Assembly (NCBI GenBank): GCA_948099385.1
Contig: CANUEZ040000156.1
Span: forward strand, 1,426,001 to 1,490,000
Direction: 5' to 3'
DNA: 64,000 bases
DNA from: Fasciola hepatica
Lineage: Eukaryota > Platyhelminthes > Trematoda > Plagiorchiida > Fasciolidae
In this document: positions 3,397 to 56,300 of the stretch, piece after piece
Numbering within the stretch: the stretch's first letter is position 1
How the letters are laid out: each line of letters opens with the position of its first letter
Made by a program: the position numbers and the translations under genes
The notes under the pieces: model-generated
Database searches by the model: none
What the model saw: the letters and a program-made list of their open reading frames with translations, nothing else
Told to the model about the DNA's origin: nothing

Positions 3397-3860
3397 GTAC
3401 GCAACCTATGAGAGTATACGAGAAGAATTCATCTCCCAGTGTTTGTCTTCTGAAGTGTTTCTTCAGATTCGTCGCAGGATCTGAATGTCACTGGTTTTGT
3501 TTCCGTGTCGAAAACATGTCGATATGCATTGTGTTCAAGCTCAAGAGACGTAGAAATGTTTTTTCATCTCAAAATTTACGAAAGATCATTTTGATTACTA
3601 CAAGCAGATTCTCACCTGAATGACGAGACCTGAAATCCACTGAACTTCCTGAAAGTAAATGCATCATGTAAAATAGATCCGGTCTGTTTTTTTGATGTCC
3701 GAACAAACAAGTCTTGGAAATATAACAGTAGTGGTTTTTGTTGTTGTTGTTGTTGTTGTGGTAGTAATAGATGTTGAGGTAGTAGTAGTAGCATTATTTG
3801 CAGTTGCAGGTGAACACATTGATTGGCCTGACAAAAATATTAGTAGCCGCGATGGAATGG
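3397..3860 (+). repeat. Diverged member of the 610-bp repeat family, inside copy 1
   Basis: This segment aligns by eye with the repeat at 15297 and 18228. Both begin with TACGCAA. Both share a stretch around 3560-3690 that includes AGATTCTCAC, TGAATGACGAG, CTGAAA and ATAGATCCGG (ATGGATCCGA in the 15-kb copy), with similar spacing. A later stretch (agtagt, then ATTG, GG and TGACAAA) also lines up. Similarity is moderate, with insertions such as the TTG tract, so this is an older relative rather than a recent copy. The nature of the family is unknown; no protein domain was recognised. Confidence 0.6.
3737..3795. repeat. TTG/GTA trinucleotide tract, copy 1
   Basis: A run of TTG units followed by GTA-rich sequence. 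It creates meaningless poly-Thr, poly-Gln and poly-Val open frames in several reading frames. Copy 2 (8520-8581) has one extra TTG unit. Confidence 0.9.
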
Positions 3861-4692
3861 ACGCATTTACACAACGGCCAGCAACTGAAATGCATACTTT
3901 CCTTGCACTCAATCCAAAATAGATGATTGGAACCAATGGTTTGAATGATATATTACCTGGTGGTGTGGGCCCAAAAATTTCTGTGGTCCTTTTCCGAATC
4001 AAAATAAACCCTTGGATTGGTCTAATGCTAAACCAGATTTCCCGAGGTATATCTGGCACGTGCACCAACGGTGACATTTTCAAACCAGGTGTTGATAACC
4101 TGTCTCTGTGTGTGAATACGACATAGGATTCTCCTTCACCGAGAATGGTTCACAATTCTGTGCAAACAGATTATATCGGACATTTATTACTGTCAAACGT
4201 ACCATGCCACCCAAGATCTAACGGTACGGCGGAGAACCGCACTAGGTTTCCCAGTGTGATTAGGCATCGAATTTAGCAAATTGTTTAGTGAATATAGACA
4301 CATCCGTGCTCCGAGATGTAAATAAAAATCGGAATTATACCATGAACGTAAGGTCAGTGAATAAAGCTCGGTTTGGTTAAATGTAATCCAATAAAGACGC
4401 ACTCTTCCGAGGCATGGTGTTTTACCTTGTGATGTCTGATATTACAGACTGAGACGACCGATACATGTACAGTCACCATCATCATCGTACAGCGGTATAC
4501 AGAAGAGCTAGCCCCACTGACCACTGCCTTTCTCATCATGTTACACAGAGAAATAGAAAGAATGAATATACAAGATGGACAGGGAGTGGACCTACACGGG
4601 AGGGAAAGGGAAAGAACGTCCTAATGGCCTACAAACAGAATACACAATCTAATCGTAGAAACAAGCGTTGATCAATCAATCATTCGGATTCG

Positions 4693-8179: not shown

Positions 8180-8646
8180 GTACGCAACCTATGAGAGTAT
8201 ACGAGAAGAATTCATCTCCCAGTGTTTGTCTTCTGAAGTGTTTCTTCAGATTCGTCGCAGGATCTGAATGTCACTGGTTTTGTTTCCGTGTCGAAAACAT
8301 GTCGATATGCATTGTGTTCAAGCTCAAGAGACGTAGAAATGTTTTTTCATCTCAAAATTTACGAAAGATCATTTTGATTACTACAAGCAGATTCTCACCT
8401 GAATGACGAGACCTGAAATCCACTGAACTTCCTGAAAGTAAATGCATCATGTAAAATAGATCCGGTCTGTTTTTTTGATGTCCGAACAAACAAGTCTTGG
8501 AAATATAACAGTAGTAGTTTTTGTTGTTGTTGTTGTTGTTGTTGTGGTAGTAATAGATGTTGAGGTAGTAGTAGTGGCATTATTTGCAGTTGCAGGTGAA
8601 CACATTGATTGGCCTGACAAAAATATTAGTAGCCGCGATGGAATGG
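8180..8646 (+). repeat. Diverged member of the 610-bp repeat family, inside copy 2
   Basis: Copy 2 counterpart of 3397-3860; it differs from it only by the microsatellite changes noted above. Confidence 0.6.
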
Positions 8647-9478
8647 ACGCATTTACACAACGGCCAGCAACTGAAATGCATACTTTCCTTGCACTCAATC
8701 CAAAATAGATGATTGGAACCAATGGTTTGAATGATATATTACCTGGTGGTGTGGGCCCAAAAATTTCTGTGGTCCTTTTCCGAATCAAAATAAACCCTTG
8801 GATTGGTCTAATGCTAAACCAGATTTCCCGAGGTATATCTGGCACGTGCACCAACGGTGACATTTTCAAACCAGGTGTTGATAACCTGTCTCTGTGTGTG
8901 AATACGACATAGGATTCTCCTTCACCGAGAATGGTTCACAATTCTGTGCAAACAGATTATATCGGACATTTATTACTGTCAAACGTACCATGCCACCCAA
9001 GATCTAACGGTACGGCGGAGAACCGCACTAGGTTTCCCAGTGTGATTAGGCATCGAATTTAGCAAATTGTTTAGTGAATATAGACACATCCGTGCTCCGA
9101 GATGTAAATAAAAATCGGAATTATACCATGAACGTAAGGTCAGTGAATAAAGCTCGGTTTGGTTAAATGTAATCCAATAAAGACGCACTCTTCCGAGGCA
9201 TGGTGTTTTACCTTGTGATGTCTGATATTACAGACTGAGACGACCGATACATGTACAGTCACCATCATCATCGTACAGCGGTATACAGAAGAGCTAGCCC
9301 CACTGACCACTGCCTTTCTCATCATGTTACACAGAGAAATAGAAAGAATGAATATACAAGATGGACAGGGAGTGGACCTACACGGGAGGGAAAGGGAAAG
9401 AACGTCCTAATGGCCTACAAACAGAATACACAATCTAATCGTAGAAACAAGCGTTGATCAATCAATCATTCGGATTCG

Positions 9479-11700
9479 ACTAAAAGTGACAACGCGATCG
9501 CCACTGTCTACAGTTCACTGACACATCCTTCAGTGTCTCCAGCCGAATGGTTCAGAGACATTTCAGACCTCAACCACAAAGACGTGAGGCATCTACTTTT
9601 CCTAAGTTCGACGCACATATTCTCATTCCCACTGCCACATCATCTGTTGACCTTTACGTGGCTTTTGCACTCCCGAGCAGGAACGGAAAACAGTGCACGG
9701 TATGGTAGACGTGTGTTTGTCATACCTAACAGGTGCCCGAACTGACGAAGTCTACTAAGCTGGATACACTGTGATAGAACATTCTCTGAACTAGAACCTA
9801 ATTCACCATATCTGGCATCAACACTGATTATCCGGTTATTCTTCTCAATCCTACTGATACTACGCAAGCATCGGTGATTGAAATCCCTGAGACTGCGAAT
9901 ATCTTATACAAGCAGTCTCCTTGTCTCGCGCCCTTAGAGTAACCGGAGTTCTTCGTGGCACAGTGTACACTATCTTTCAGCTTCAGACAAATATCATAGT
10001 GGTAATACATATGCTTCAGTCAAGCATACTTCGTTCCAGCCTTCAATGTACGCGTCCGCATCTCTACTACAGTACTCTCATCTGTCCTCAAGCTGCTCCC
10101 GAAATAAGTGAAACGGTCGACAATTATCAGCACCCCGCATCGCACACCACATTTGGAATCGTTGCTTCGCTTCCCGCAACATCACTTTACACTTTGAAGA
10201 TGCAAAGTGCATGCCGAATAGATCTTCAGCTCTCGCAAGTCTATCTATTGCCCTTTGCTTGTGTTCCGTGCAATTGAACAAACAGACAAGGTCTCCCGCG
10301 TAATCTAGGTCACACGGCTTTTTACCATGTCCTAGTTCGATGCCCACATTTTGGACATTAAGCAAAGCTTTCCCTATTATCCCGTCCATTACCAAGTTGA
10401 ACAGAAATGTAGAAATCGGACATCCCTGTCGATCATGGCTGATTGTTTCGAACAGACTCGATAGTTCACCGTAAACCCTCACACTACCATAAGTATGAGA
10501 ATACAATGACTTCAGTAGATTCACGATCTTCTGCAACATAGCTTTCCGATGAAGAGCAGTGAAGAGCGATGTTCGATGAACTGAATCAAAGGCGCTCTTC
10601 AAGCCATGGAAAAAAGTTATTGTTGGTCAACTGTATGTGTGGCACGCTTCAAGTGGTTGTTGAAGAGTAAAATTTGGTGGCGACATCCTTGACCTGGGCC
10701 TGTTGTTAGCGGGCTTTCCTCTCGCAAGCCGGTGTCAGGCGACGTAGCAAAATAAAAGCTAATATCTTGGTCACTATTAGAACTAGGCTGATCCTACGAT
10801 GGTTACTGCAGTCCATGCATATTTCCTTCTTGAATGTGGGTAGAATCAATGACTAGCTCCATAATAACGGAATACGCTCCTCCTCTCAAATGTCACGGAG
10901 CGAGGTGGAAAGTGATTTATTCAATTCCAGTTCCGATGGGGGTACAATTTATGCTTCCCAAGATATCGCTGTTATTAATGACGGACTAACTACACCAGAT
11001 GAACTGCTCCTTGAAGTATTCGGCCCAAAGGTCCAGCCTTTGTTCATTACCATGAATGGGCTCTCCAATTCGATCGCGTATCTTTTCACTGTCCGGAGTC
11101 CGCCGTCCACCGGTTTTGCGAATATGTTTGAACAATCTTTGACTGTTACCTGAAGCAGCTGCTATTTTCTCTTTATTGGCTGCCTTGACCGACTGGTTTT
11201 CGCAACCATTCCTAGGGCTTTTTGTAACTTGCTTGTGTAGACTTCTCCGTATCTTATTCATCTCCTCACAGTTGTGGAGCTGACGTTTTCGCTCCACTAG
11301 ACTGAACGACTTTTGAGAAATCTAGTGTCATTGATGGACGTCGGATCTACGACCACATGTGAAACCTGCTGCCACGTGCATTGCCTGCTGGAAATGAACC
11401 CAATGCTCATTTACATTACTGTTCTTTGTAGATCCTAGCTCATGTGCTAATTTCTGTTCGTAACTGGTGTGAACTTCTGAATCACTTAAACATAGTACTG
11501 CTAAATGTGTTTGCAGTATGCTTCAATGATCATAAAGCTCAAGCGATAAATGCATGAAAACTAATGCATGGTGCATCAATGAGACACCGGGAGCGGTTAG
11601 TAGATTCAAAATTGCTCGAATCCTGGATACGCGTTTTACGTACGCTGCAGACATCAATCTTCAAAGAGTCCATTTTGCGTCCCAGGCACGCCAGCTGAAT
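9479..11700 (-). mobile_element. RTE/SR2-like LINE relic with endonuclease, RT and C-terminal pieces
   Basis: Read on the minus strand from 11.7 kb downwards, the order is that of an SR2/RTE-type LINE. First comes an endonuclease start (DVCSVRKTRIQDSSN, family CCVSETRIQDSS), then a connector (NEHWVHFQQAMHVAA at about 11.4 kb; RLFKHIRKTGGRR and RLDLWAEYFKEQF at 11.0-11.15 kb). Next is the RT: SAFDSVHRTSL near 10.6 kb, RQGCPISTFLFNLVMD, and CDLDYAGDLVCLF, where the catalytic YADD has become YAGD; FGMHFASSKCKVM follows at about 10.2 kb. The tail is LRSISRIEKNNR, then RLPYRALFS, ending in RQWRSRCHF. Much of the endonuclease is missing between about 11.6 and 11.5 kb, and several stops and frameshifts break the frame. 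It cannot encode an active protein as written. It acts, or acted, by target-primed reverse transcription. Confidence 0.85.
9857..9867. repeat. 11-bp direct repeat, right of copy 2
   Basis: Exact match of 6780-6790. On the minus strand it is also the LINE codons for Leu-Arg-Ser-Ile, so it lies within coding sequence of the RTE-like relic. Confidence 0.6.
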
Positions 11701-17289: not shown

Positions 17290-17550
17290 TCCCGATGTTT
17301 AACCATGTGCGACTAAACTTTCACTTTGCTTGAGTGACTACCTTCCAGATTCCACCCTTCCCGCACAAACCTCAAGTCATCCAACCAACCTGCACTCAGA
17401 AGCACCAGACTCGAGTTTTGCTCTTCTTTGAGCTCATCAGTGATGCATATCCTAGGCCGCCTCCAGGGTTTGAACCCGGGCCTTTTCACCTCGAAGGCGA
17501 GTGAAGTACCACGGCGTCATCCAGCTCACGCCCAGGCTGATCCGATTCAC
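17290..17550 (-). mobile_element. tRNA-derived SINE with hammerhead motif, minus orientation
   Basis: On the minus strand the order is a leader (GAATCGGATCAGCC), an A-box-like TGACGCCGTGGTAC, a B box (GGGTTCAAACCC), a hammerhead-like fold at 17446-17402, then a tail with TTGGTTGGATGACTTGAGG and GTTTGTGCG. The same order and sequence recur at 54.25-54.8 kb. The A and B boxes are the internal RNA polymerase III promoter of tRNA-derived SINEs. The 3' boundary is uncertain. A plus-oriented piece of the same family follows at 17595, so the two form an inverted pair. Confidence 0.8.
17402..17446 (-). ncRNA. Hammerhead-ribozyme-like fold, core G12 changed to A
   Basis: On the minus strand: stem I GCATCA pairs with TGGTGC at the other end (one G-U); core CTGATGA; stem II GCTC/GAGC around a short loop; then AAA where GAA is conserved; stem III ACTC/GAGT with no loop; cleavage triplet GTC. 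All elements are in hammerhead order and spacing. Position 12 is A instead of G, which should abolish or strongly reduce cleavage. A loopless palindromic stem III is typical of minimal hammerheads that work as dimers. Confidence 0.7.
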
Positions 17551-17594
17551 TGAGTTCAGTTTGTTCAAAGGCCGTCCTCTATATTCTCAGTGTT

Positions 17595-17690
17595 GGATTT
17601 TTGTGCGTGAAAGGTGGAGTCCGAAGGTTAAGCAGCCAAGCAAATTGTCATCCATCTGAGATACTACTTGCGATATGCGTATGAAATCTT
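17595..17690 (+). mobile_element. SINE 3' fragment, plus orientation
   Basis: The sequence TTTGTGCGTGAAAGGTGGAG, then AAGG and AGC, then TTGCGATATGCGTATG matches the tail of the plus-oriented SINE at 54.70-54.79 kb. It lacks the tRNA-like head and the ribozyme, so it is a 5'-truncated fragment facing the SINE at 17290-17550. Confidence 0.65.
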
Positions 17691-28900: not shown

Positions 28901-31900
28901 ACCTTTCCGTTTTGGGCTGCATTTTGCCGTCATCAGCGGCCCTTTTCCCCTATTGGCCTTATAGAATTTGCTGTGACCCCTTCCCATAAATATTGGGTCA
29001 TTGCTATTTGTGTGAGAAGGAGGTAATCAAAAGAATAGTAAGTGGGAAAATTGTAGCCACATGGCGTGAAAAGAAAGGTGTGAAAAGCGAAGGTGTGGAA
29101 ACAGTAGAGGACAGGGGAGAATTTGTACATGGGAACCATAAGAGAACCATTTTCTGCGGCCATGATAACAATAACGGTTGCATGACGTTGCCTTACGTGA
29201 GTGATTCCAGCTTCGATAATCGAACTGCCAGGGCTTTTGACGTCATCAGCAGCCACCTGCGTAATCGTTTCTCGTGAACTTTGGATTTGAAAGCTGTCAC
29301 TGTATTGAACTCATGTCCACTACCCGCCAGATGAAATATAAAATTCTATCCTTTGAATTCCACCAGTTGGCGAGCTGTGCAATTATGGGCCCGAATAACT
29401 AAACCAAGTGATTTAAAACAAGATGAAGCATGCAACCGATCAAATATTACATTTCTTCACCCGTGATCGATCTAGACTGATCCACAAGTCTCAGGAACAA
29501 TCCGGCTAACTTTGGACCTTGGTGGAAGCGGATATTGACCTGGGAATCTTTTCAATCAGTGATTCTCGGTGATCATCCCAATGTGAAACTTTCCATTTAG
29601 GACATTCTACTTATTACATGGTCCCGGTTATGACTCACTTGTCTATGGGCAGAGTCAGCTTTGTTTGCCACAGCTTTCCTCAGTGGAAATCACTTATTCT
29701 GGTTCTTCTTCAGTCTGAGGCCATCGATTGATTCACGTGATCATCATCGCTGTTGCGTAATTTTTCTCACTCTACTACTTCTACTATAAAATACATTCGG
29801 AAAAGATAATGGTTCGACTAGAAAGCTGCTTATTTTTGACAAATATGGTTGGCCTGCCAATCTAGAAAAATTATTCGGACGATTCTGGCTTTAGGTAGAA
29901 GTTTGGGTTGAAATAATGGTACATTTCAGAAACCTATAGGAAGGCAGTAAATGCTCTCCGTTATCTCTTTTTTGGAAGGTTTTATGTGTCAAATGTTCAA
30001 AGGTATGGATTTTTGCGCATGGTTCAATCGGTTCTACACTGTGTCGTAGAAAAATTTTGAAATATTTAAACGTTATTCTATTTGTTCCACAAATTGTAGC
30101 ACAAGTGAACCGAAACCGATTATCATATCTTCTGTTGGTGGCTCTGCTGGTGGAAGAATAGTTCCAATTTCAATGTTTAAAGGATTTCAAAGAAAGGGTT
30201 TTTTGGTACACAAGAGTAGATTTTCTCAATTTTTCCCACTAAGTCAGGCTACATTTTCTCAACTCCAGTCACGTCCCCTGTACCATCACTCACCATCCCT
30301 TTGACTGCCAAAGCAAAATGAAACAACAAGGTGTCTTCAGAGAATCCAAATTTCGTCCCTCAAGTCCTTCGCGTAAGCATGAGCATGAACAAGGAAGTTG
30401 GCGATATTCAGGCAGGAATTCCCCGCGAAGTCCCCATCTATTGGCACTCACAACAATGACTATGCAAATAAACTGGAGTAGAGAGGCATATCACATTCTT
30501 TTGCATCCTATTTTGAGAAGAAGCTGTGTCACCATGCTTGGATATTTTCACACGTTTTTCACGAGTATTTCCATTCTTTTTGCGTTGCTAGTCCGTGGTA
30601 TTCTTTTTTCATCTCGGAATGGCACAAGCTGTATTTTTACCGTCTTACAAATACTACGGTGATCAAGTCAGCATCGGTGTCCTCAGAATGGACTAGCCTT
30701 ATTGTAGCCGGAGTGCTTCGGAAGAAAATGTACTTATGTTTCCACATTTTCATACTTTTTGTACCCCGTTCAATCGTGCATAGCGGCTAGACCGTACATA
30801 TAGGGCTTCAGAAGCCGTTTAATTATTGGGCTTTAAGTGACCTAGTAGTACTAATTCGAAGATGCCGAAGACAGACAGTTTAAGTACTACGTTTTGTGAC
30901 TTTCGCAGGATAAGAAGCAGTTATCGAAAATGGTAATTCCATCTCCATCGTTCAGGGAAAGCCATCACAGGTTTTTATACCCACATGTTTCTTTCTCATG
31001 GGTCGTTTTCTATCAAAATCGCATCATTTTGTTCAATAAACCGACCATGGATGGCAATCTCTACCCAGACTGAACTAAATGCACTCAGAAAGACAAACAG
31101 TTTTACGCAGTGTAATAAAAATGGAGGATTAGCTCTCTCATATATCAAGACTAACTATGATAAGACAATCCACCCGATGATAAACCGAAGGGCTGGCAGT
31201 GGTTGATCATCATCACAAGTGCATGTTATTGAAAGATCACATTCCGAAGCAATTTCGCCGAGTAAGAGAATTTCCCAGCTGGCTCGGAATGATTATTCCA
31301 GAAGAATCGAATAAGAATTCAAAGGAAGGAACCTGTCTTGCTATGAGGACATCAAAATTGGTTGGACAATTGCTGACTCAGAGGAATTTCCGATAAGAAA
31401 GCAAACATCTGATACGCTTCCATGTTTTTGAAACATACCATTTCCATACCATCGTCATAATGTGCATTAGTGTTGGTCTACCCAAACGTATGTTATCAAA
31501 ACACAATAGCAAGTAGGTTGTTTCCCCAAACCAATTCGTCGGAAATCATTTAGTCCACCAACGAACCTGTGGCCCTCAACACTGTCAGTCTGACGTTAAA
31601 GTTGAGTCAGTCATAGGGGCAATAAAAATGACTCTTATACTGGCAAAATTATGACAATGATTCAGACGTCACATCCCCTGAACAAGGATAATATCAAGCA
31701 GCTGTATTTGTTCTCCGTGAAACTTATCAAACATTTTCAACTGTTATCTTACTATGGGCTGGTTTCTTGAATATTCCTGAGAGATTTTGATGTAAAACAA
31801 CACAACGAATTGATAGACAGAATAAAGGTTTCCTGTTCTCTTGGAAAAATGTTAACTCCTATCGTCACTGTATTCATGTTCCCAAAATAATCCAAGGATC

Positions 31901-33914
31901 TATCCCCAAGTGAATCGTTGAAGTTGTCATCTGCCAACCATTTCTCGTTAGTCACAAAGAAAGGGAGAAATAGGCTTTTTTCATGAAAACTGTGAAGTTG
32001 GTTTTTTATTTCTACTGAGCTATTTTCATTCATTAATTAACACGTCCATCGTTCTATCATTTAAACTTGGATTTTCGGCTACTGCACTATCCCAGTTAGT
32101 TTGAGTACTGAACTTAAGGAGTGAAAAATATCGTACAACATCCCAATACATTTATGCCTACGTGAATAAATTCGCTGATTATGAAGTTCAGCCATTCATG
32201 GAAACGATATACAATGAACTGAGGGGGAAGCCACGTGTTATGAATGAGGTCATAAATCGTGTGCACAAAGTCAACTTCGGAATTTTAAAAAGAAATGGTT
32301 CTTTGTAAACAAATCATAGATTATGTGCTATTCCGAAAAATTTCACTCAACTACAGTCTGAATTGAATTGCCTAATACTTTTTCCCTCATATCTCACTCT
32401 CTTGGCATCTTTTCTCGACGACGGAAATTCGCTCGTTTCTACTTTGAGAAAGCTGTGGTCCGTCCAACCCCAGTGACCACCGTCGTATCATCATCACTTC
32501 AAACATCCGAAGTAGTATGATGCTATTGAAACTGAAATAGGTTTGCTTTTACCTGTAATACAAAAAGGAATTAGTTGGAGGACGTATAACAGTAAATTCA
32601 TGTCCCACTTGTCCCAATTAGGTACTACAGCAGTGGAAATGCGACATCTTGGTGTGGAAGATTTTTTGTCCTCCGGAAGTGGTAATTTCCATCATCCTGT
32701 CTTTCATCTCCGTCTCTCTCTTTTTTGGTCACACTAAGTGAGAACAATGCTCATTCAAAGACAAACCCACCAAACCATATGGGGTTTGAAAGCTCCTGCC
32801 TATCACTTTTAATCATCTCACGATGATGTTGCGATGAGTGCTCAAATGAACTAAAGCTAGAAGTCCGTCGCTTTTGAATAAGAGCTGTTATCTCGTTTGA
32901 AAAGTGCATAGAGTGTACGAACGCATATTCCATTTTTTAAATCACAAGGTGATTCTTCCAACAACCGCAAAATCAGTCATTTGCTTCCGGGGAAGTTTTG
33001 TCTTATTATCCGGGTGCTATAAGATACTGCTTATATTGTCGTTCGAATTAGCCGAATGAAGCCAGTTCCAACTACTTCATGATGGAAAACATTGAGCTGA
33101 TGCGAAATTCTGTAACTGTTTGACAGATTTTTTTGTGAGAAGCAAAAATAAAATCCGGGTTCGTTCTCCGCGCCTGCGGCGTTAGGCATCTACTTAATGC
33201 CCGCATGGTTTCGAACAAAGACGTGGTCGGGGATGTGTCGAATTAGATCTCTTTACCGTCTGTCCAAATCTGTCGAACCTTGATTTTGTATTACTTGAAA
33301 GTTTGTTCAGACAATATACGTTGCGTGAATGTGTGAGGATTGACAAGAGTACAATCACTACTATTAATAAAACTAAAGGAATAATACTAGTTGTTTTTCA
33401 TTTGTATTTGAGTGCCAGCGAATAAGTGACGTTTATTTGTTTTGTCGCTTATTGCCTTACAAAATATAAAACTTCTAGAACTGTCTTCACTCTTGCCCGA
33501 TGATCGAGACGATGTCATTGCGTAGTGTGAAGCAAAAAGTGATCTGATAAAGCAATTGTTATTTTTTTGTCCCTGAGTTACATTGTTTTTGAGCAAATAG
33601 TAATCCTTAAATCCACTGCTTCTTTTATTTGAGAGGTTAGGACAAGGTGGGGTTTCAGACAGTAACCCATGCAATTATACGACTGCACCAAATGGATGCT
33701 TTATATTTTATATCACACTATCTATAATTATAACCTACATACTCAACTCACTACATGACCAGCTGTATCGAACAACATAATCGAAATTCGTGATAGGGAA
33801 ACTAACCTTGTAATACACTTTCTGTAAGAGGATGGAATTCATTCAAAGTTCAGTATTGTTCATCATATATCAGACTCCTCGTAAGGAATTACACTACTAC
33901 AACGTAATTATGAA
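22970..33914. other. Long gene-poor stretch
   Basis: About 11 kb without a feature I can support. Items seen but not promoted: a 34-codon ATG frame at 23717-23818 with coding-like composition (MARKDFRRVLAGRI); plus-strand frames at 24784-25011 (after the acceptor-like gctgtgtttcag) and 28993-29277; and minus-strand frames at 26791-27093, 28725-28922 (contains NVSEISRLF, loosely Penelope-like) and 31752-32033. None has both a recognisable domain and matching splice partners. More decayed retroelements are likely here. Confidence 0.4.
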
Positions 33915-36855: not shown

Positions 36856-37847
36856 TGACAAGAACAGTTGCTTAGATTATTTCTTCCTACTTTCGGTCCA
36901 AATAAGAGGCCAATTTCGTTCTCAAAATCAACCTGACGGACAAACCGAGGAAAAGTTGAGGACAAGCGGTGTTCCTGTAAAATAACTCTGAATACTTGTA
37001 TTCCGTTGTTAAGCTGTATCAATTTCCTTTGTGATGTCCATTCTGCTATTTCAAAGAATGAACCCCGTACGGTTGATGTCACTCCGAGTTATTTATATTA
37101 GCAATGCAGTGAAATACCGGCACTTGCAAACTGATTTTCTGTGTTGATGGGAATATCGGTTTAGTATGGTTCTTTATTTGGAACCAGTAATTAATAAATA
37201 CACAATGCGGTTCGCCCTGTGTCATCATCGGTCAACCGACTACCTTCACCCCCCTCTCAACTCCCCGCGCTAATGGAAATCGTGGAAACAATATACACCT
37301 GTTTGGAGTCATCAACAGTGCACATCCACCAAGATATTATTAGGACCGGAACCCGGGTGTAACAATTTTGAATCGCACATCTAGATACCACTCTATTCCG
37401 GTAGGCTGTCAATAGTTTATCTGAACATCCAAACTGCAGTCTGTCAGATGGATTTTCATTGTACGGAAATTCTTCTCAGAGATAAGCATCACAGTAAGTG
37501 ATAACCCAAATCACTACCGATAATTTTTGTATCCTTTACCATAACCACGTGGGGCTCTAATGAAAACAGAGTAGACGAAAGCAAAATAATGTTTACTCTA
37601 CAAACCACGTTCAATTATACCTAAATGATGTCTAACCGAAATGAAAGCCACGTGATTAGTTGAGAAGTAATTGTATCCGATAAACTGAAAACTCTGATTT
37701 TTCATATCAACATAAAAGTAACTGTACTACGCATATTATTAAAGTAGAAAAAATATTGACTTTTCGTACAGGCTTATTACACAACTTACCTTGGGCATTC
37801 GCTGAAGTAAACAGTAGAACGACGAACAAAAGGAAAGTGTAGCGCAT
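36856..37847 (-). CDS. Secreted or membrane protein, first two exons (product unknown)
   Basis: Exon 1 (37847-37790) starts with ATG in a good context (A at -3) and encodes MRYTFLLFVVLLFTSANAQ. This is a textbook signal peptide with one Arg, a Leu/Val/Phe core and a small-residue cleavage site. The exon ends at a near-perfect donor, CAAG|GTAAGT, after one base of the next codon. Exon 2 (37045-36856) follows an acceptor (ctttgaaatag). It completes that codon as Ala and stays open for 63 codons (EWTSQRKLIQLNNGIQVFRV, later FPRFVRQVDFENEIGLLFG and NNLSNCSC). It ends at the donor CA|GTAAGA. The intron is 744 bp. The matching phase and four good splice features support a real gene; the product should enter the secretory pathway. 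No family was recognised and later exons were not found, so this model is partial. Confidence 0.55.
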
Positions 37848-51960: not shown

Positions 51961-54250
51961 CATGGAGACACAAAAAACCGCAGCCGTGCTGGTTGGCAGG
52001 CTGCTTTAACTGCACTCCACTAACAAAGATGTCCGTCCCGTCTCTGTCCAGTACCAACATTCGTTCTCTTTTCGCGAAAATATCGGATCTAACCCTCGTT
52101 CTTCGTTCTCGCAACCGTGTTCGTAAGCGTGTGGCTCGTATACAAGAATCGTGGTTAAACGTACATATTGCTGACTCAATGATGTCAATAAATGGCTTCA
52201 AACTGTTCCAGCAGGAGAGGACTTTCACCAACAAGAAGGCTGCAGGTGAAAGGGTCACACGTGTCAACTCCAACTGGTGTGGAAGTCTGAAGTCGTTTAT
52301 TCATACTCGATGAAAGGTGTTGATTGTTTAGTGATACAGGGCCATCCTAAATTTTCTCGCCATAGGAGCACCATCATAACTAGCATATACGTGGCTCTGT
52401 TTTTCACAGAGAACGCTATTTCACCTTTCTATGACTCTTTTTCACCTTCCCTTGTTTCCTCGTTAGATGACAATTTGCACATCCTAGTAGGCGATTTTAC
52501 TCAGGCTTCCACTCAACCCCTCTTTGCTTTCGAAATAACTGGTCTTTGTGTTTCTCCAACCAGAGGCAACTCTGTTTTGGACATGGTTATCACCAATCAT
52601 CCTGAATTATTCTTCCTAAAGCTGCGCGCACCTGCCTCAACCAGTGACTATTGTCAGTTTCTGTTAAGGCCTAAGATATAATCCCGGTCTGTTTTTCATT
52701 CTTTCACACAAACCAGTCAAATCAAAATCCGTCTCCGAATTGTTTCACGTGACGACGTTGTTCTCCTGCAGAAATCCTTTTCTCATGCATCTTTCTGGTT
52801 TTCTTCTGAATCATCGCTCACAGAAGCGGTCAATTTCGACATGAGCTGCCTCTTAGAAACCCCCTTTATCTGTAACGGTCGTGCCACTTCTCCGACGTTG
52901 AAATCCTTAAGAAGACGGGAGGAATATTTCTACAAAGTCCGGGATAATTCTAAAGTAAGATACATATCGCTTTTATCAAAGAAAGAAATTTAACGCACTG
53001 ACTCACTGTATGCTAGTCAACTCCTGTGTAGCCTTAACACTAACCGACTATGGCAAGGCATTCGGCTGCTGAGTGGAAAGAAAACGAAACAAGTGAAACT
53101 GGCTGCGGACGTTGACAGTATCAACAGTGCATTTATGCACCCATCAAATGACTCTTCGATTTCATTCATTCCAGAAGATGGTCCGCACATAACCCCGTTC
53201 TCTACGGAAAAAGAATTTGAGCTTCTTCGTACTTCCAAGATAACCTCATGTATTGGTCCTGATGGCCTATCGTCATCACATTTGGGACACGGTTCTGTTG
53301 CTATGACCGATATATTTACTTCTCTTTAAAACAAATATTTGTGCCCATTTTCTATTCAAGACTGCAGGAGACCAGTCACCGTTGTTTCTATACCCAAACC
53401 TTATAATTTTGGTGTCGCAGCTAAACGCTTTTGTTCCATTTCTCTCACTTCATGTGGTCTTGAACCTGCAGTGTGCCATTCTTAGGCGTTGAAATTCTTC
53501 TATAAACTCTCCCTACGATTCCTTACAGTTTGCCTATAAATTGAACAGGTCCACTGTAGATGTCATCGCTCCCTTATTCCACCAAATAACAAAATCCTTG
53601 GATGGTTCAGTGAAGACTGTTTGATGCTCTTCTACAGACTACTCAGCCGCTTTTGATCCTACTCAATGGTCTCTCCTCCTCTGTAAACTGGAAGCTTTCG
53701 GCTGTCCCACACCTGTACTAGCATGTTTGTCTGATTATTTTATCATCAGAACTCAGTGTACACGACTGGATTTAAAAATATCCAAGCCCTTGGAGAACAA
53801 CTCAGGAGTGCTTCAGGGAGCTGTGCTTTTCCCTATTTATCTTCCACCTATATTAGCTATCTTTCATCTAGTTCTCCTGCACATTTACTTAAATATACCA
53901 ATGATGTGGCTCTTTGCCAAACCTTTTGCGTAACCTAGGACTTCCTTAACTTATCCAGTAATCTGTCCCTTATTTATGATTCCTCTGTTCGATCCGGGTT
54001 AATTTTACACTTATCCCAATGCTTTGACTGCGTATTTACTCTTCCTCGATCGGCTCATCCTTTTGATCCATTTGGCATTTCCACAGAACCACTAGCTCGA
54101 GTGAGTTTTGTCAACTACTTAGGAGTCACCATCGATGCAAATTTGAAGTGGTCATTTCGTATTTCAAACTGGGTGAAGAAACTACGCCGGCTATCCTACC
54201 AAATCCAAAAGCTTAAACATCTTAACGCTAATCAGAGTCAACTGATTTAC
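51961..54250 (+). mobile_element. Jockey-like LINE relic, endonuclease and RT (inserted in the Penelope element)
   Basis: The order on the plus strand is that of a Jockey-superfamily ORF2. The endonuclease begins with STNIRSLFAKISDLTLVLRS (family TN-RSL--KI--L---L). After a gap come ESWLNVHIADSMMSINGFKL and NLHILVGDFTQAS (family L-GDFN). The domain ends with RGNSVLDMVITNHPELFFLK and TSDYCQFLLRPKI (family SDH). The RT follows: SCIGPDGLSSSHLGHGS near 53.27 kb, DYSAAFDPTQWSLLLCKL at 53.64 kb (F--AFD), GVLQGAVLFPIYLPP (GVPQGSVLGP) at 53.8 kb, LKYTNDVALCQ (YADD changed to YTND) at 53.9 kb, and VNYLGVTIDANLKWSFRI at 54.1 kb. At least five frameshifts or stops are present. The reading is cut at QSQLIYL by the SINE pair and resumes at 54.81 kb. 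Confidence 0.88.
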
Positions 54251-54450
54251 CTGCACTCGGAAGCACCAGCCTCGAGTTTTGCTCTTGTTAGAGCTCATCA
54301 GTGGTGCATATCTTCTGCCACACTCAGGGTTTGTACTCGGATATTTTCACCTCGAAGGCGTGTGAGTTACCACTGTGCATTCCATCCGGTGAAGAAGACC
54401 TGACTCGATGAGAGGCATTCGCTTGGAGTTAACGGGGCTGGTACCGTGTC
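54251..54450 (-). mobile_element. SINE with hammerhead motif, minus orientation (left arm of inverted pair)
   Basis: Reverse-complementing this segment gives CACAGTGGTAACTCACACGCC (A-box region), GAGTACAAACCCTGAG (decayed B box), the hammerhead-like core at 54307-54263, and GCTTCCGAGTGCAG. About 126 bp (54252-54378) pairs with 54551-54676 at roughly 85-90% by eye. It interrupts the LINE codons for QLIYL. The left, head-side boundary of this copy within 54379-54500 is uncertain. Confidence 0.8.
54263..54307 (-). ncRNA. Hammerhead-ribozyme-like fold, G12 to A and cleavage-site change
   Basis: On the minus strand: stem I GCACCA/TGGTGC is perfect, CTGATGA core, stem II GCTCT/AGAGC closed by AACA, then AAA for GAA, then ACTCGAGGC. 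The core G12 is A, and the position that pairs with A15.1 is G instead of U, so the cleavage triplet is GGC instead of GTC. The fold is preserved but should be inactive. Confidence 0.7.
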
Positions 54451-54499
54451 TCCATTCGAAGCTGTCGGGCATCTCTGGCTGTCCTAGAGATCAACATCT

Positions 54500-54805
54500 G
54501 ATCAAGCTTACCTTGGCGATTCGGATCAGCCCGGACGGGAGCAGGGTGGCGCAGTGGTGACACACACGCCTTTGAGGTGAAAGGACCTGAGTTCAAACCC
54601 TGAGTGTGGCAGAGGATATGCACCACTGATGAGCTCTAACAAGAGCAAAACCCAAGTCTGGTGCCTCCGAGTGTAGGTTGGTCGGATGACCTGAGGTTTG
54701 TGCGTGAAAGGTGGAGCCCAAAGGACAGTCAGCTAAACAAAAATTCATCAATATCGCACGCCACTCACAAGTGGTTGCGTGATACATATGCTAAACAGTG
54801 TTATT
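54500..54805 (+). mobile_element. SINE with hammerhead motif, plus orientation (right arm of inverted pair)
   Basis: The order is a leader GCGATTCGGATCAGCCCGG, A box GGTGGCGCAGTGGTGACAC, B box GAGTTCAAACCC, a hammerhead-like fold (54620-54664), and a tail with GGTTGGTCGGATGACCTGAGG and TTTGTGCGTGAAAGGTGGAG, ending near ttgcgtgatacatatgc. It is the most complete copy of the family in the window. It faces away from the copy at 54251-54450. The LINE reading (FVYQCIHLVLLYYSPVIL) resumes just after it. Confidence 0.82.
54620..54664 (+). ncRNA. Hammerhead-ribozyme-like fold, G12 to A, stem III decayed
   Basis: Stem I GCACCA/TGGTGC and stem II GCTCT-AACA-AGAGC are perfect, and the CTGATGA core and GTC cleavage triplet are present. 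G12 is A, and the short stem III is damaged (ACCC opposite AAGT). Expected to be inactive. Confidence 0.7.
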
Positions 54806-55204: not shown

Positions 55205-56300
55205 TTCATCCTATGGATTCGGTGAGGTTCCAAGTGTAAATCATTTTTGACTGAAATGCGGACTTATGTCGACGCAAAAGTATGATCAAAAGCAAATGCA
55301 AACTGTATAAATAGATCAAACAAATGAGCTCACATGGACAGTACATAGGTGACTTATTCTTTTTCAAAAATAAAAAGACTATCGTATAAGACACAAAACC
55401 AGCGTTCAACAAGGCGCATACAGTCATTCAATTCACATTAGATATCGAAAAAAACGATATACAGACCTTCGCACATGTTTTGATGCATAGGAGCACCAAC
55501 GAATCGGTCGAAATAAGGGTACACAGAAAGCAAACATTAACTGAACAGTGCATCAGCTTTCTCGGTTGTGTACTTAGAAGACATAAGAACCTAGTTCAAT
55601 ACTTGGCTTCATGAGTAGGAAAAATATGCTCTAAGGAAACCACAGAAAAAACCAGGCCCATTTACAATCTTTCTCAGGGAGTACGATCATGCTTAGAGCT
55701 TCATACAGCAAAATCTAAAATATAGACCTAAGTGTGATCCAGGTTCCGAGATCCCAGGAAGAAACTGTCTATGCGTGAACCGTTCAAAGAATACGCCACA
55801 TCGGAATATCCCAGTCGGTCCGTATTTCTTGTATATTGGCAAGCTCTTCATTATTCGATATTCTAATAAGATTGTGGCGCCAAGGTTTGCCACCTCAATG
55901 ATAATCTGTTTGTTCAGGTGTACATATAAAGCAACCCACACTGGCCAAATGGCAAGGCAACTATCTCAGAGGATTAAGGAACACTGTCCACGGTAGCTTC
56001 AACATGGAGAAACAGGAACCACATCAAATGCCATTCTCGGGCACTAGGTGGACTCAGATCATCAAATTCACGTAGATTGGGCGCACCAAGTCATTTATCG
56101 AGTGCACCCTAATCTCCAAGAGCACATTCGTCAGAACACAGTGGCTTTCGCAGTGGTGATTATCATCCATCTTTTCGAGCGTGCTCTGTGTACACAGAAG
56201 AAATTTGTCCAAACCCACCAATCAACCTGGCCGCAAGTGAAGCACACTTACCCAAAAGACTCAGATCTGAACCGTGAGACTGTCTCGATCTAGTCGGACA
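55205..56300 (+). mobile_element. Penelope-like element, 3' part (RT end and GIY-YIG endonuclease)
   Basis: The Penelope reading resumes: HMDST (position of YMDDT, catalytic aspartates altered), then FKNKKTIV, HTVIQFTLDIEKND, HVLMHRSTNESVEIRVHRKQ and TEQCISFLGCVLRRHKNLVQ (family LPFLDVL--R----V---VYRK--WT-QYI-F-S--P--HKRNLV). From 55.86 kb the GIY-YIG domain is visible as CLFRCTYKATHTGQMARQLS and QRIKEHCPR, then VDSDHQIHVD and LFERALCTQKKFVQT. Four frameshifts or stops are present. It completes the element begun at 51060. Confidence 0.87.

What the first reader, a model, noticed from the sequence alone, without database searches (positions are those of the whole stretch)
54251..54805. tRNA-derived SINE family carrying a hammerhead-ribozyme fold
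Three copies (minus at 17402-17446, minus at 54263-54307, plus at 54620-54664) place the same 45-nt motif just downstream of RNA polymerase III A and B boxes. Stem I (GCACCA/TGGTGC), core CTGATGA, stem II (GCTCT/AGAGC) and a loopless palindromic stem III (ACTC/GAGT) are all in hammerhead order. Schistosome SM-alpha is the established precedent for a hammerhead inside a tRNA-derived SINE. This family has different stems and looks like another lineage of the same idea.
Basis: partly seen in the sequence, partly recalled or inferred. Interest (0 to 1): 0.8.

Follow-up and report, generated by a model that had tools for sequence, protein, structure and literature searches.

The report
Hammerhead ribozyme SINEs inserted Penelope-style
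The window holds decayed copies of a tRNA-derived repeat with a self-cutting hammerhead RNA, and how its copies sit in the genome suggests that Penelope-type retroelements insert them, which bears on the open question of what moves such elements in animals.

Summary
The three 45-nt motifs are at the stated places behind A/B boxes, but all three have A at catalytic position G12 and two also have a broken stem III, so these copies look dead. Those at 54263 and 54620 are one compound insertion, 54249-54789. Genome-wide the hammerhead is real: 2,084 exact cores (94 of 100 listed keep G12), Rfam Hammerhead_1 above cut-off in young copies, stems that covary across three families. Family A is a 451-nt unit, often tandem; family C (401 nt) has a tRNA-Val cloverleaf before its hammerhead; family B (300 nt, no boxes) has about 42,000 pattern matches. 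The surprise is insertion anatomy. All 40 distinct mapped A/C insertions with two opposed arms are head-to-head. In 28 of 34 for family A one outer end lies about 87 nt and the other about 127 nt past the ribozyme cut, never both at the first site; 18 mapped compounds carry 11-14-bp target duplications. A resident Penelope-like element (GIY-YIG) shows the same rule in 4 of 4 compounds examined. I conclude: Sm-alpha-like retrozymes inserted by Penelope-type machinery. The exact partner and any RNA activity are untested.

The parts
54249..54378 (-). left arm of one head-to-head family A insertion (unit positions 343-214)
   Evidence: BLAST to the 451-nt unit, 87% identity
54383..54789 (+). right arm of the same insertion (unit positions 47-451), ending at the distal 3' site S2
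   Evidence: 86% identity; right end at unit 451
54263..54307 (-). hammerhead motif, left arm; G12A and stem III broken at its outer pair
   Evidence: sequence; HH9 26.7 bits, E 2e-4
54547..54557 (+). RNA polymerase III A box-like TGGCGCAGTGG
   Evidence: sequence; box scan of the unit
54590..54600 (+). B box-like AGTTCAAACCC
   Evidence: sequence
54620..54664 (+). hammerhead motif, right arm; G12A and stem III disrupted (ACCCAAGT)
   Evidence: sequence; HH9 28.7 bits, E 4.4e-5
17330..17582 (-). older family A copy (unit 402-149, 80% identity)
   Evidence: BLAST
17402..17446 (-). hammerhead motif of that copy; G12A, stem III intact
   Evidence: sequence
17600..17625 (+). weak opposed family A piece (unit 362-387), possibly the right arm of a 17.3-kb compound
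   Evidence: 88% over 26 bases, E 0.005
32959..33002 (+). fragment of family B hammerhead (unit 232-275), core partly lost
   Evidence: 84%, E 2e-7; sequence
37300..37438 (-). decayed family C tRNA-like region (unit 384-246)
   Evidence: 71%, E 8e-13; sequence
55351..56272 (+). decayed Penelope-like coding remnant (weak RT tail 55351-55491, GIY-YIG-like part 55850-56242)
   Evidence: tblastn of Echinostoma caproni protein P0010, E 0.007 and 5e-25; frames with many stops

Best explanation
The motif belongs to a tRNA-derived, hammerhead-bearing SINE (a retrozyme of the Sm-alpha kind) in a trematode-like genome. A Pol III-type internal promoter would read through the ribozyme and, in tandem copies, through several units; self-cleavage after ...GAGUC would release 451-nt monomers that a host ligase could circularise (inferred from published retrozymes; no RNA evidence here). 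A Penelope-like (GIY-YIG) enzyme then cuts both target strands about 12 bp apart and starts reverse transcription on both at two internal sites of the RNA, S1 about 87 nt and S2 about 127 nt past the ribozyme cut, one per strand, giving a head-to-head insert with the 40-nt tail at one end only. Shown: ribozyme fold by covariation, tRNA boxes, divergent architecture, S1/S2 rule, target duplications, the same grammar in a resident Penelope-like element. Inferred: transcription, cleavage, circles, mobilisation in trans.
For: Hammerhead: 2,084 exact cores, reversed-pattern control 0; Hammerhead_1 above gathering for 15 motifs in 6 of 20 loci, 14 of family A in 5 loci and 1 of family C in L024; 94% of pair cells standard, covariation score 0.555 vs 0.191 shuffled and at most 0.108 slid. 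tRNA: A and B boxes in unit A; tRNA-Val(CAC) by ARAGORN in family C, L029 and L033, 2 of 20 loci scanned. Divergence: 44 of 44 mapped compounds head-to-head, 40 distinct; neighbours within 800 bp among 274 listed places: 25 divergent, 36 tandem, 0 convergent. Ends: of 34 distinct family A compounds 28 have one S1 and one S2 end, 2 have two S2, 4 have one end elsewhere, 0 two S1 (28 or more of 30 by coin toss 4e-7). TSD of 11 or more bases in 20 of 86 insertions, 18 of the 20 compounds, vs 2 of 1,698 mismatched flank pairs. Resident Penelope-like element: 90 GIY-YIG matches over cut-off, 7 of them in open frames of 828-829 aa; neighbours within 6 kb 10 divergent, 7 tandem, 0 convergent; the 4 divergent compounds whose ends I fetched each have one end at 276-279 and one at 342-347 of the junction sequence, TSD 12-15 vs at most 6 in mismatched controls. 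Literature: PMC11167929 (parts 1-2 of 4 read) reports a purified PLE protein that cuts and extends both strands and starts at two adjacent internal sites that explain the 30-40 bp tail; from its figures the start lies about 85-92 nt past the hammerhead cut, family A's S1 86-90.
Against: No sequence match between unit A, B or C and the sampled junction of the resident element (BLAST); its S1-S2 spacing is 66-68 nt, against about 40 in A and 32-34 in C, so it need not be the partner. In that copy only the GAAACGTC half of a hammerhead is plain; the CUGANGA half is not canonical. I did not read the RT part of the 828-aa frame; Pfam recognises neither RT nor GIY-YIG in the Echinostoma protein P0010 nor GIY-YIG in the L112 piece, which I placed by eye and by homology. 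66 of 86 insertions have no TSD of 11 bases or more; 2 compounds have two S2 ends; 32 of 70 family A rows are single-orientation (23 ending at S1, 5 at S2, 4 elsewhere). Family C is thin: 2 of 6 compounds follow the rule fully, one of them much decayed (L077). Of the 20 loci scanned, the C array L029 and the B loci do not reach Hammerhead_1's cut-off. In one search two of five measures (pairs with double changes, further pair types) do not exceed shuffles. The sample comes from first-listed places and was mostly chosen by an intact core. No RNA data.
Confidence: 0.78

Rival explanations
1. An ordinary LINE-dependent SINE (Sm-alpha style): an RTE- or L1-like enzyme copies the RNA from its 3' end, and the head-to-head copies are classical twin priming.
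For: LINE-type RT is present (window 10078-10626, RVT_1); twin priming also gives divergent arms and TSDs (established knowledge), and the arms overlap by 1-8 bases at 30 of 45 junctions (no chance control run); Sm-alpha is called SINE-like (PMC2770079 passages).
Against: Twin priming would leave one variable outer end, yet here both outer ends are fixed and pair one S1 with one S2 in 28 of 34; about half of the mapped insertions are compound (44 of 86); the resident Penelope-like element shows the same rule and TSD length.
Confidence: 0.12
2. Satellite DNA: tandem arrays spread by unequal exchange and rolling-circle DNA, with inversions from recombination.
For: Some arrays show alternating shared variants (L038, L068), which fits later block duplication; several loci are segmental duplicates.
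Against: TSDs of 11-14 bp surround whole compounds; no convergent arrangement among the listed places; ends fixed.
Confidence: 0.04
3. The hammerhead fold is a relic without a role; the family spreads only by its tRNA promoter and 3' signals.
For: The window's copies are core-dead; the PLE study reports that ribozyme mutants still insert in vitro (PMC11167929, part 2 read).
Against: Three families keep core and loop while stems differ; G12 and the cleavage-site C are kept in 91 and 98 of 103 copies, a set mostly chosen by the core.
Confidence: 0.06

Closest known systems
Sm-alpha / Sj-alpha hammerhead SINEs of Schistosoma
   Same: tRNA-related sequence followed by a type I hammerhead with loopless stem III (Rfam Hammerhead_1 consensus); tandem and dispersed copies (partly recalled)
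   Different: Different stems; A has a degenerate tRNA-like part and C a tRNA-Val(CAC), against tRNA-Gln for Sm-alpha (PMC2770079 passages); insertion anatomy of Sm-alpha not tested here
Metazoan non-LTR retrozymes (Cervera and de la Pena 2020)
   Same: Tandem units of 300-451 bp (150-450 bp there), type I hammerheads, TSDs longer than 4 bp, co-resident PLEs
   Different: The sections read mention tRNA only for ligation, not as promoter; partner there argued from co-existence, here from insertion ends
Penelope-like elements (Penelope/Poseidon)
   Same: Head-to-head compounds, tail at one end only, short TSD, hammerhead upstream of the start sites (PMC11167929 parts 1-2, PMC3846280 passages)
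   Different: Families A and C are 451- and 401-nt repeats with tRNA-like promoters, too short for such an ORF
Rfam Hammerhead_HH9
   Same: Best-scoring model in permissive searches: 28.7 bits for a window copy, 37.4 for a young copy; near-identical stem II GCUC..GAGC
   Different: Below that family's gathering score of 52; known as a vertebrate intronic motif (recalled)

Membership tests
Hammerhead ribozyme, type I | CUGANGA core, G12-A13-A14, NUH before cleavage | tested here: met
   Family level. NOT met at G12 in the 3 window copies
Hammerhead ribozyme, type I | three helices supported by covariation | tested here: met
   (three of five measures above all shuffles, two not); Hammerhead_1 above gathering in 15 motifs
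Hammerhead ribozyme, type I | self-cleavage | not testable with these tools
   no RNA assay
tRNA-derived SINE | A and B boxes / tRNA head | tested here: met
   family C tRNA-Val; boxes in A and C; family A tRNA-like only weakly; not met by family B
tRNA-derived SINE | 3' tail shared with a partner LINE | not tested
   no search for a LINE sharing the tail was made
Metazoan retrozyme | tandem units of a few hundred bp each with a type I hammerhead | tested here: met
   451 bp, 401 bp, 300 bp
Metazoan retrozyme | expressed as self-cleaved linear and circular RNA | not testable with these tools
   no transcript data
Penelope-style insertion | head-to-head arms with tail at one end only and TSD | tested here: met
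   for A; thin for C (2 of 6); not mapped for B
Penelope-like element | RT plus GIY-YIG ORF | not tested
   A and C units are 451 and 401 nt; no family search was run on them; they are not claimed as PLEs
Sm-alpha family proper | sequence homology to Sm-alpha beyond the ribozyme | not tested
   no Schistosoma genome was searched; only the Rfam consensus compared

The most novel reading that the evidence does not exclude
A class of SINEs that depends on Penelope-like elements rather than LINEs: hammerhead circles serve as templates, and one dimeric PLE complex uses the two adjacent start sites of one template, one per target strand, so a compound insertion gets exactly one tail. Round-the-circle copying then explains homogeneous arrays on both arms.
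Probability: 0.42. Interest if true: 0.86.

Novelty: new variant of a known kind. Interest (0 to 1): 0.72.

Why it matters
A 2020 review (PMC7761336, passages) says metazoan retrozymes show no conserved motif from which to deduce the machinery that moves them, and names Penelope-like elements as likely candidates from shared hammerheads and co-occurrence. Insertion ends give a direct, countable test: paired S1/S2 ends, head-to-head arms and about 12-bp duplications in both the SINE and a resident element. It also offers thousands of natural reaction products for studying how Penelope-like enzymes prime on both strands.

Tried and rejected
Rejected: simple LINE-type twin priming as the full account (both outer ends fixed); satellite origin (TSDs around compounds). 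Family B as the autonomous element: its ATG lies in CTGATGA as in the Anolis PLE, but the one locus fetched at a 7.46-kb repeat showed LINE-like RT by eye, no PLE seen. Circular template: arrays are nearly uniform (L032 3 private differences in 3,578 bases, L029 0 in 2,015) against 3-6 of 455 between L032, L038, L068 and L070; this fits a circle but also a uniform multimeric transcript, and L038 and L068 have variants shared within the array.

Counts to qualify: one search also dropped row L071 as a duplicate of L049 on AT-rich flanks (0.9 match), probably wrongly; L071 is not compound, so the end counts stand. Of the two long matches in the TSD control one is 39 bases and most likely comes from duplicate loci. 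L034 (inside L038) and insertions within 60 bases of a locus edge were left out; one of these, family C in L075 (ends 98 and 63, TSD 13), would have followed the rule. Body-anchored loci outside the core-chosen list gave two further one-S1-one-S2 compounds (L096, L111), one resembling L043/L044 (L121), and three single-orientation pieces (L098, L118, L119).

Full report
Observation. Two of them are the arms of one head-to-head insertion, 54249-54789, of a 451-nt repeat unit. All three read AAAAC after stem II instead of GAAAC, and two have damaged stem III, so these copies are very probably inactive. The change at G12 sits in a CpG (GCGAAAC to GCAAAAC), an ordinary decay path (inference).

Family. 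The window is part of a 1.5-Gb, 656-contig assembly. A generic core pattern, CTGATGA-N14-GAAAC, occurs 32,054 times against 162 for the reversed pattern. The window's own core with any base at G12 occurs 2,084 times, control 0; of the 100 places listed 94 have G, 4 A, 2 T. A body pattern with up to two mismatches finds 6,048 copies, control 0.

Three families share the plan. A: 451-nt unit, A box and B box, hammerhead about 20 nt later. C: 401-nt unit with an ARAGORN tRNA-Val(CAC) followed by the hammerhead. B: 300-nt unit in one array, no boxes by my scan, 41,963 matches of a 34-nt hammerhead pattern with up to two mismatches. A and C share 69% over 68 columns of B box and hammerhead. Rfam Hammerhead_1 passes gathering for 14 family A motifs in 5 loci and one family C motif (L024) out of 20 loci scanned; the C array L029 and the B loci did not pass. 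In a 23-sequence alignment that I chose to span the families and that includes the three window copies, 94% of cells are paired and the covariation score is 0.555 against 0.191 shuffled and at most 0.108 when slid; the number of pairs with double changes (7) and of further pair types (22) did not exceed shuffles. These are in effect three lineages. Loop 2 (mostly YAACAA) stays the same while stem II is replaced, which suggests a kept tertiary contact (inference).

Insertion anatomy. I mapped 80 fetched loci plus the window to units A and C. Of 86 insertions scored, 44 have two opposed arms; all 44 are minus-then-plus, that is head-to-head; 40 remain after duplicates are removed. Among 274 listed places of three pattern searches, neighbours within 800 bp are 25 divergent, 36 tandem, 0 convergent. 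The outer ends are not random. For family A, one lies at unit 388-419 (S1) and the other at 437-451 (S2) in 28 of 34 distinct compounds; 2 have two S2 ends, 4 have one end elsewhere (the window's is one of these), none has two S1 ends. With the cut at 323, young copies place S1 86-90 and S2 126-128 nt downstream. Family C: S1 about 63-67, S2 about 97-99, 2 of 6 compounds with both. Target duplications of 11 or more bases, mostly 12, surround 20 of 86 insertions (18 of them compounds; 2 are duplicate loci) against 2 of 1,698 mismatched pairs. Example: L032, an array of minus units followed by plus units in a single insertion between copies of GATATTGTGATA. Arms overlap by 1-8 bases at 30 of 45 junctions (no chance control).

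Comparison element. GIY-YIG (PF01541) gives 90 matches here over the cut-off, from 302 candidates of which 150 were scored; 7 of the 90 lie in open frames of 828-829 aa, the longest frame is 869 aa. Neighbours within 6 kb are 10 divergent, 7 tandem at about 2,752 bp, 0 convergent. I fetched one tandem junction, the outer ends of 4 of those divergent compounds, and one further end. Each of the 4 has one end at position 276-279 and the other at 342-347 of the junction sequence, 56-59 and 122-127 nt past its GAAACGTC hammerhead-like half (the other half of the core is not canonical in that copy), with 12-15-base duplications against at most 6 in mismatched controls. I did not read the RT part of that frame. 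Similarity to the Echinostoma protein P0010 (RT-like tail plus GIY-YIG-like part by eye; Pfam recognised neither) flanks a family A compound in L039, and a decayed remnant lies at 55351-56272 in the window.

Literature. PMC11167929 (parts 1-2 of 4 read): a Penelope-like protein from Anolis cuts and extends both strands and starts at two adjacent internal sites; the interval is the known 30-40 bp tail. It saw no difference in start site between strands, so the one-per-strand rule is my inference from genomic ends. PMC3846280 (passages): Penelope copies with inverted pLTR, a 31-bp tail optionally at one of them, 9-bp TSD in one case, mostly head-to-head. PMC7229834 (abstract, passages, four sections) and PMC7761336 (passages): metazoan retrozymes, PLEs proposed as partners. 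PMC2770079 (passages): Sm-alpha, tRNA-Gln-derived, over 38,000 hammerhead hits in S. mansoni. PMC4918200, PMC6155905 and PMC8490949: passages. In searches no listed title or abstract start described a PLE-mobilised SINE or a retrozyme partner shown by insertion ends; the lists were capped, subscription journals are mostly not held, and three key papers (Cervera 2014, Ferbeyre 1998, Lunse 2017) could not be read.

Reading. The ribozyme is real at family level and dead in this window. The insertion grammar is that of Penelope-like elements and is shared with one resident in the same genome, so Penelope-type machinery is the best explanation for mobilisation. The particular partner, the circle step and transcription are inferred.

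Noticed in passing
window 3664-4149 and 8447-8935 (minus): Near-identical 161/162-aa frames 4.78 kb apart: probably a local duplication (repeated motifs).
   Followed up: no
window 10078-10626 (minus): LINE-type reverse transcriptase fragment, RVT_1; best named relative Dicrocoelium dendriticum.
   Followed up: partly
window 29160-29333 (minus): Weak second Penelope-like remnant (30% over 63 aa, E 0.001).
   Followed up: no
G000 family B, L125: 300-nt hammerhead tandem unit, about 42,000 pattern matches, no tRNA boxes seen, some copies beside (AT)n; its possible start codon lies in CTGATGA as in the Anolis PLE. Origin unresolved.
   Followed up: partly
L021/L022, L043/L044, L047/L048, L078/L079: Insertions with matching flanks, some mirror-image, about 2.5 to 140 kb apart: segmental or palindromic duplications, or assembly effects.
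   Followed up: no
L068, L038: Alternating shared variants between array units (1 with 3, 2 with 4) suggest later two-unit block duplication.
   Followed up: no
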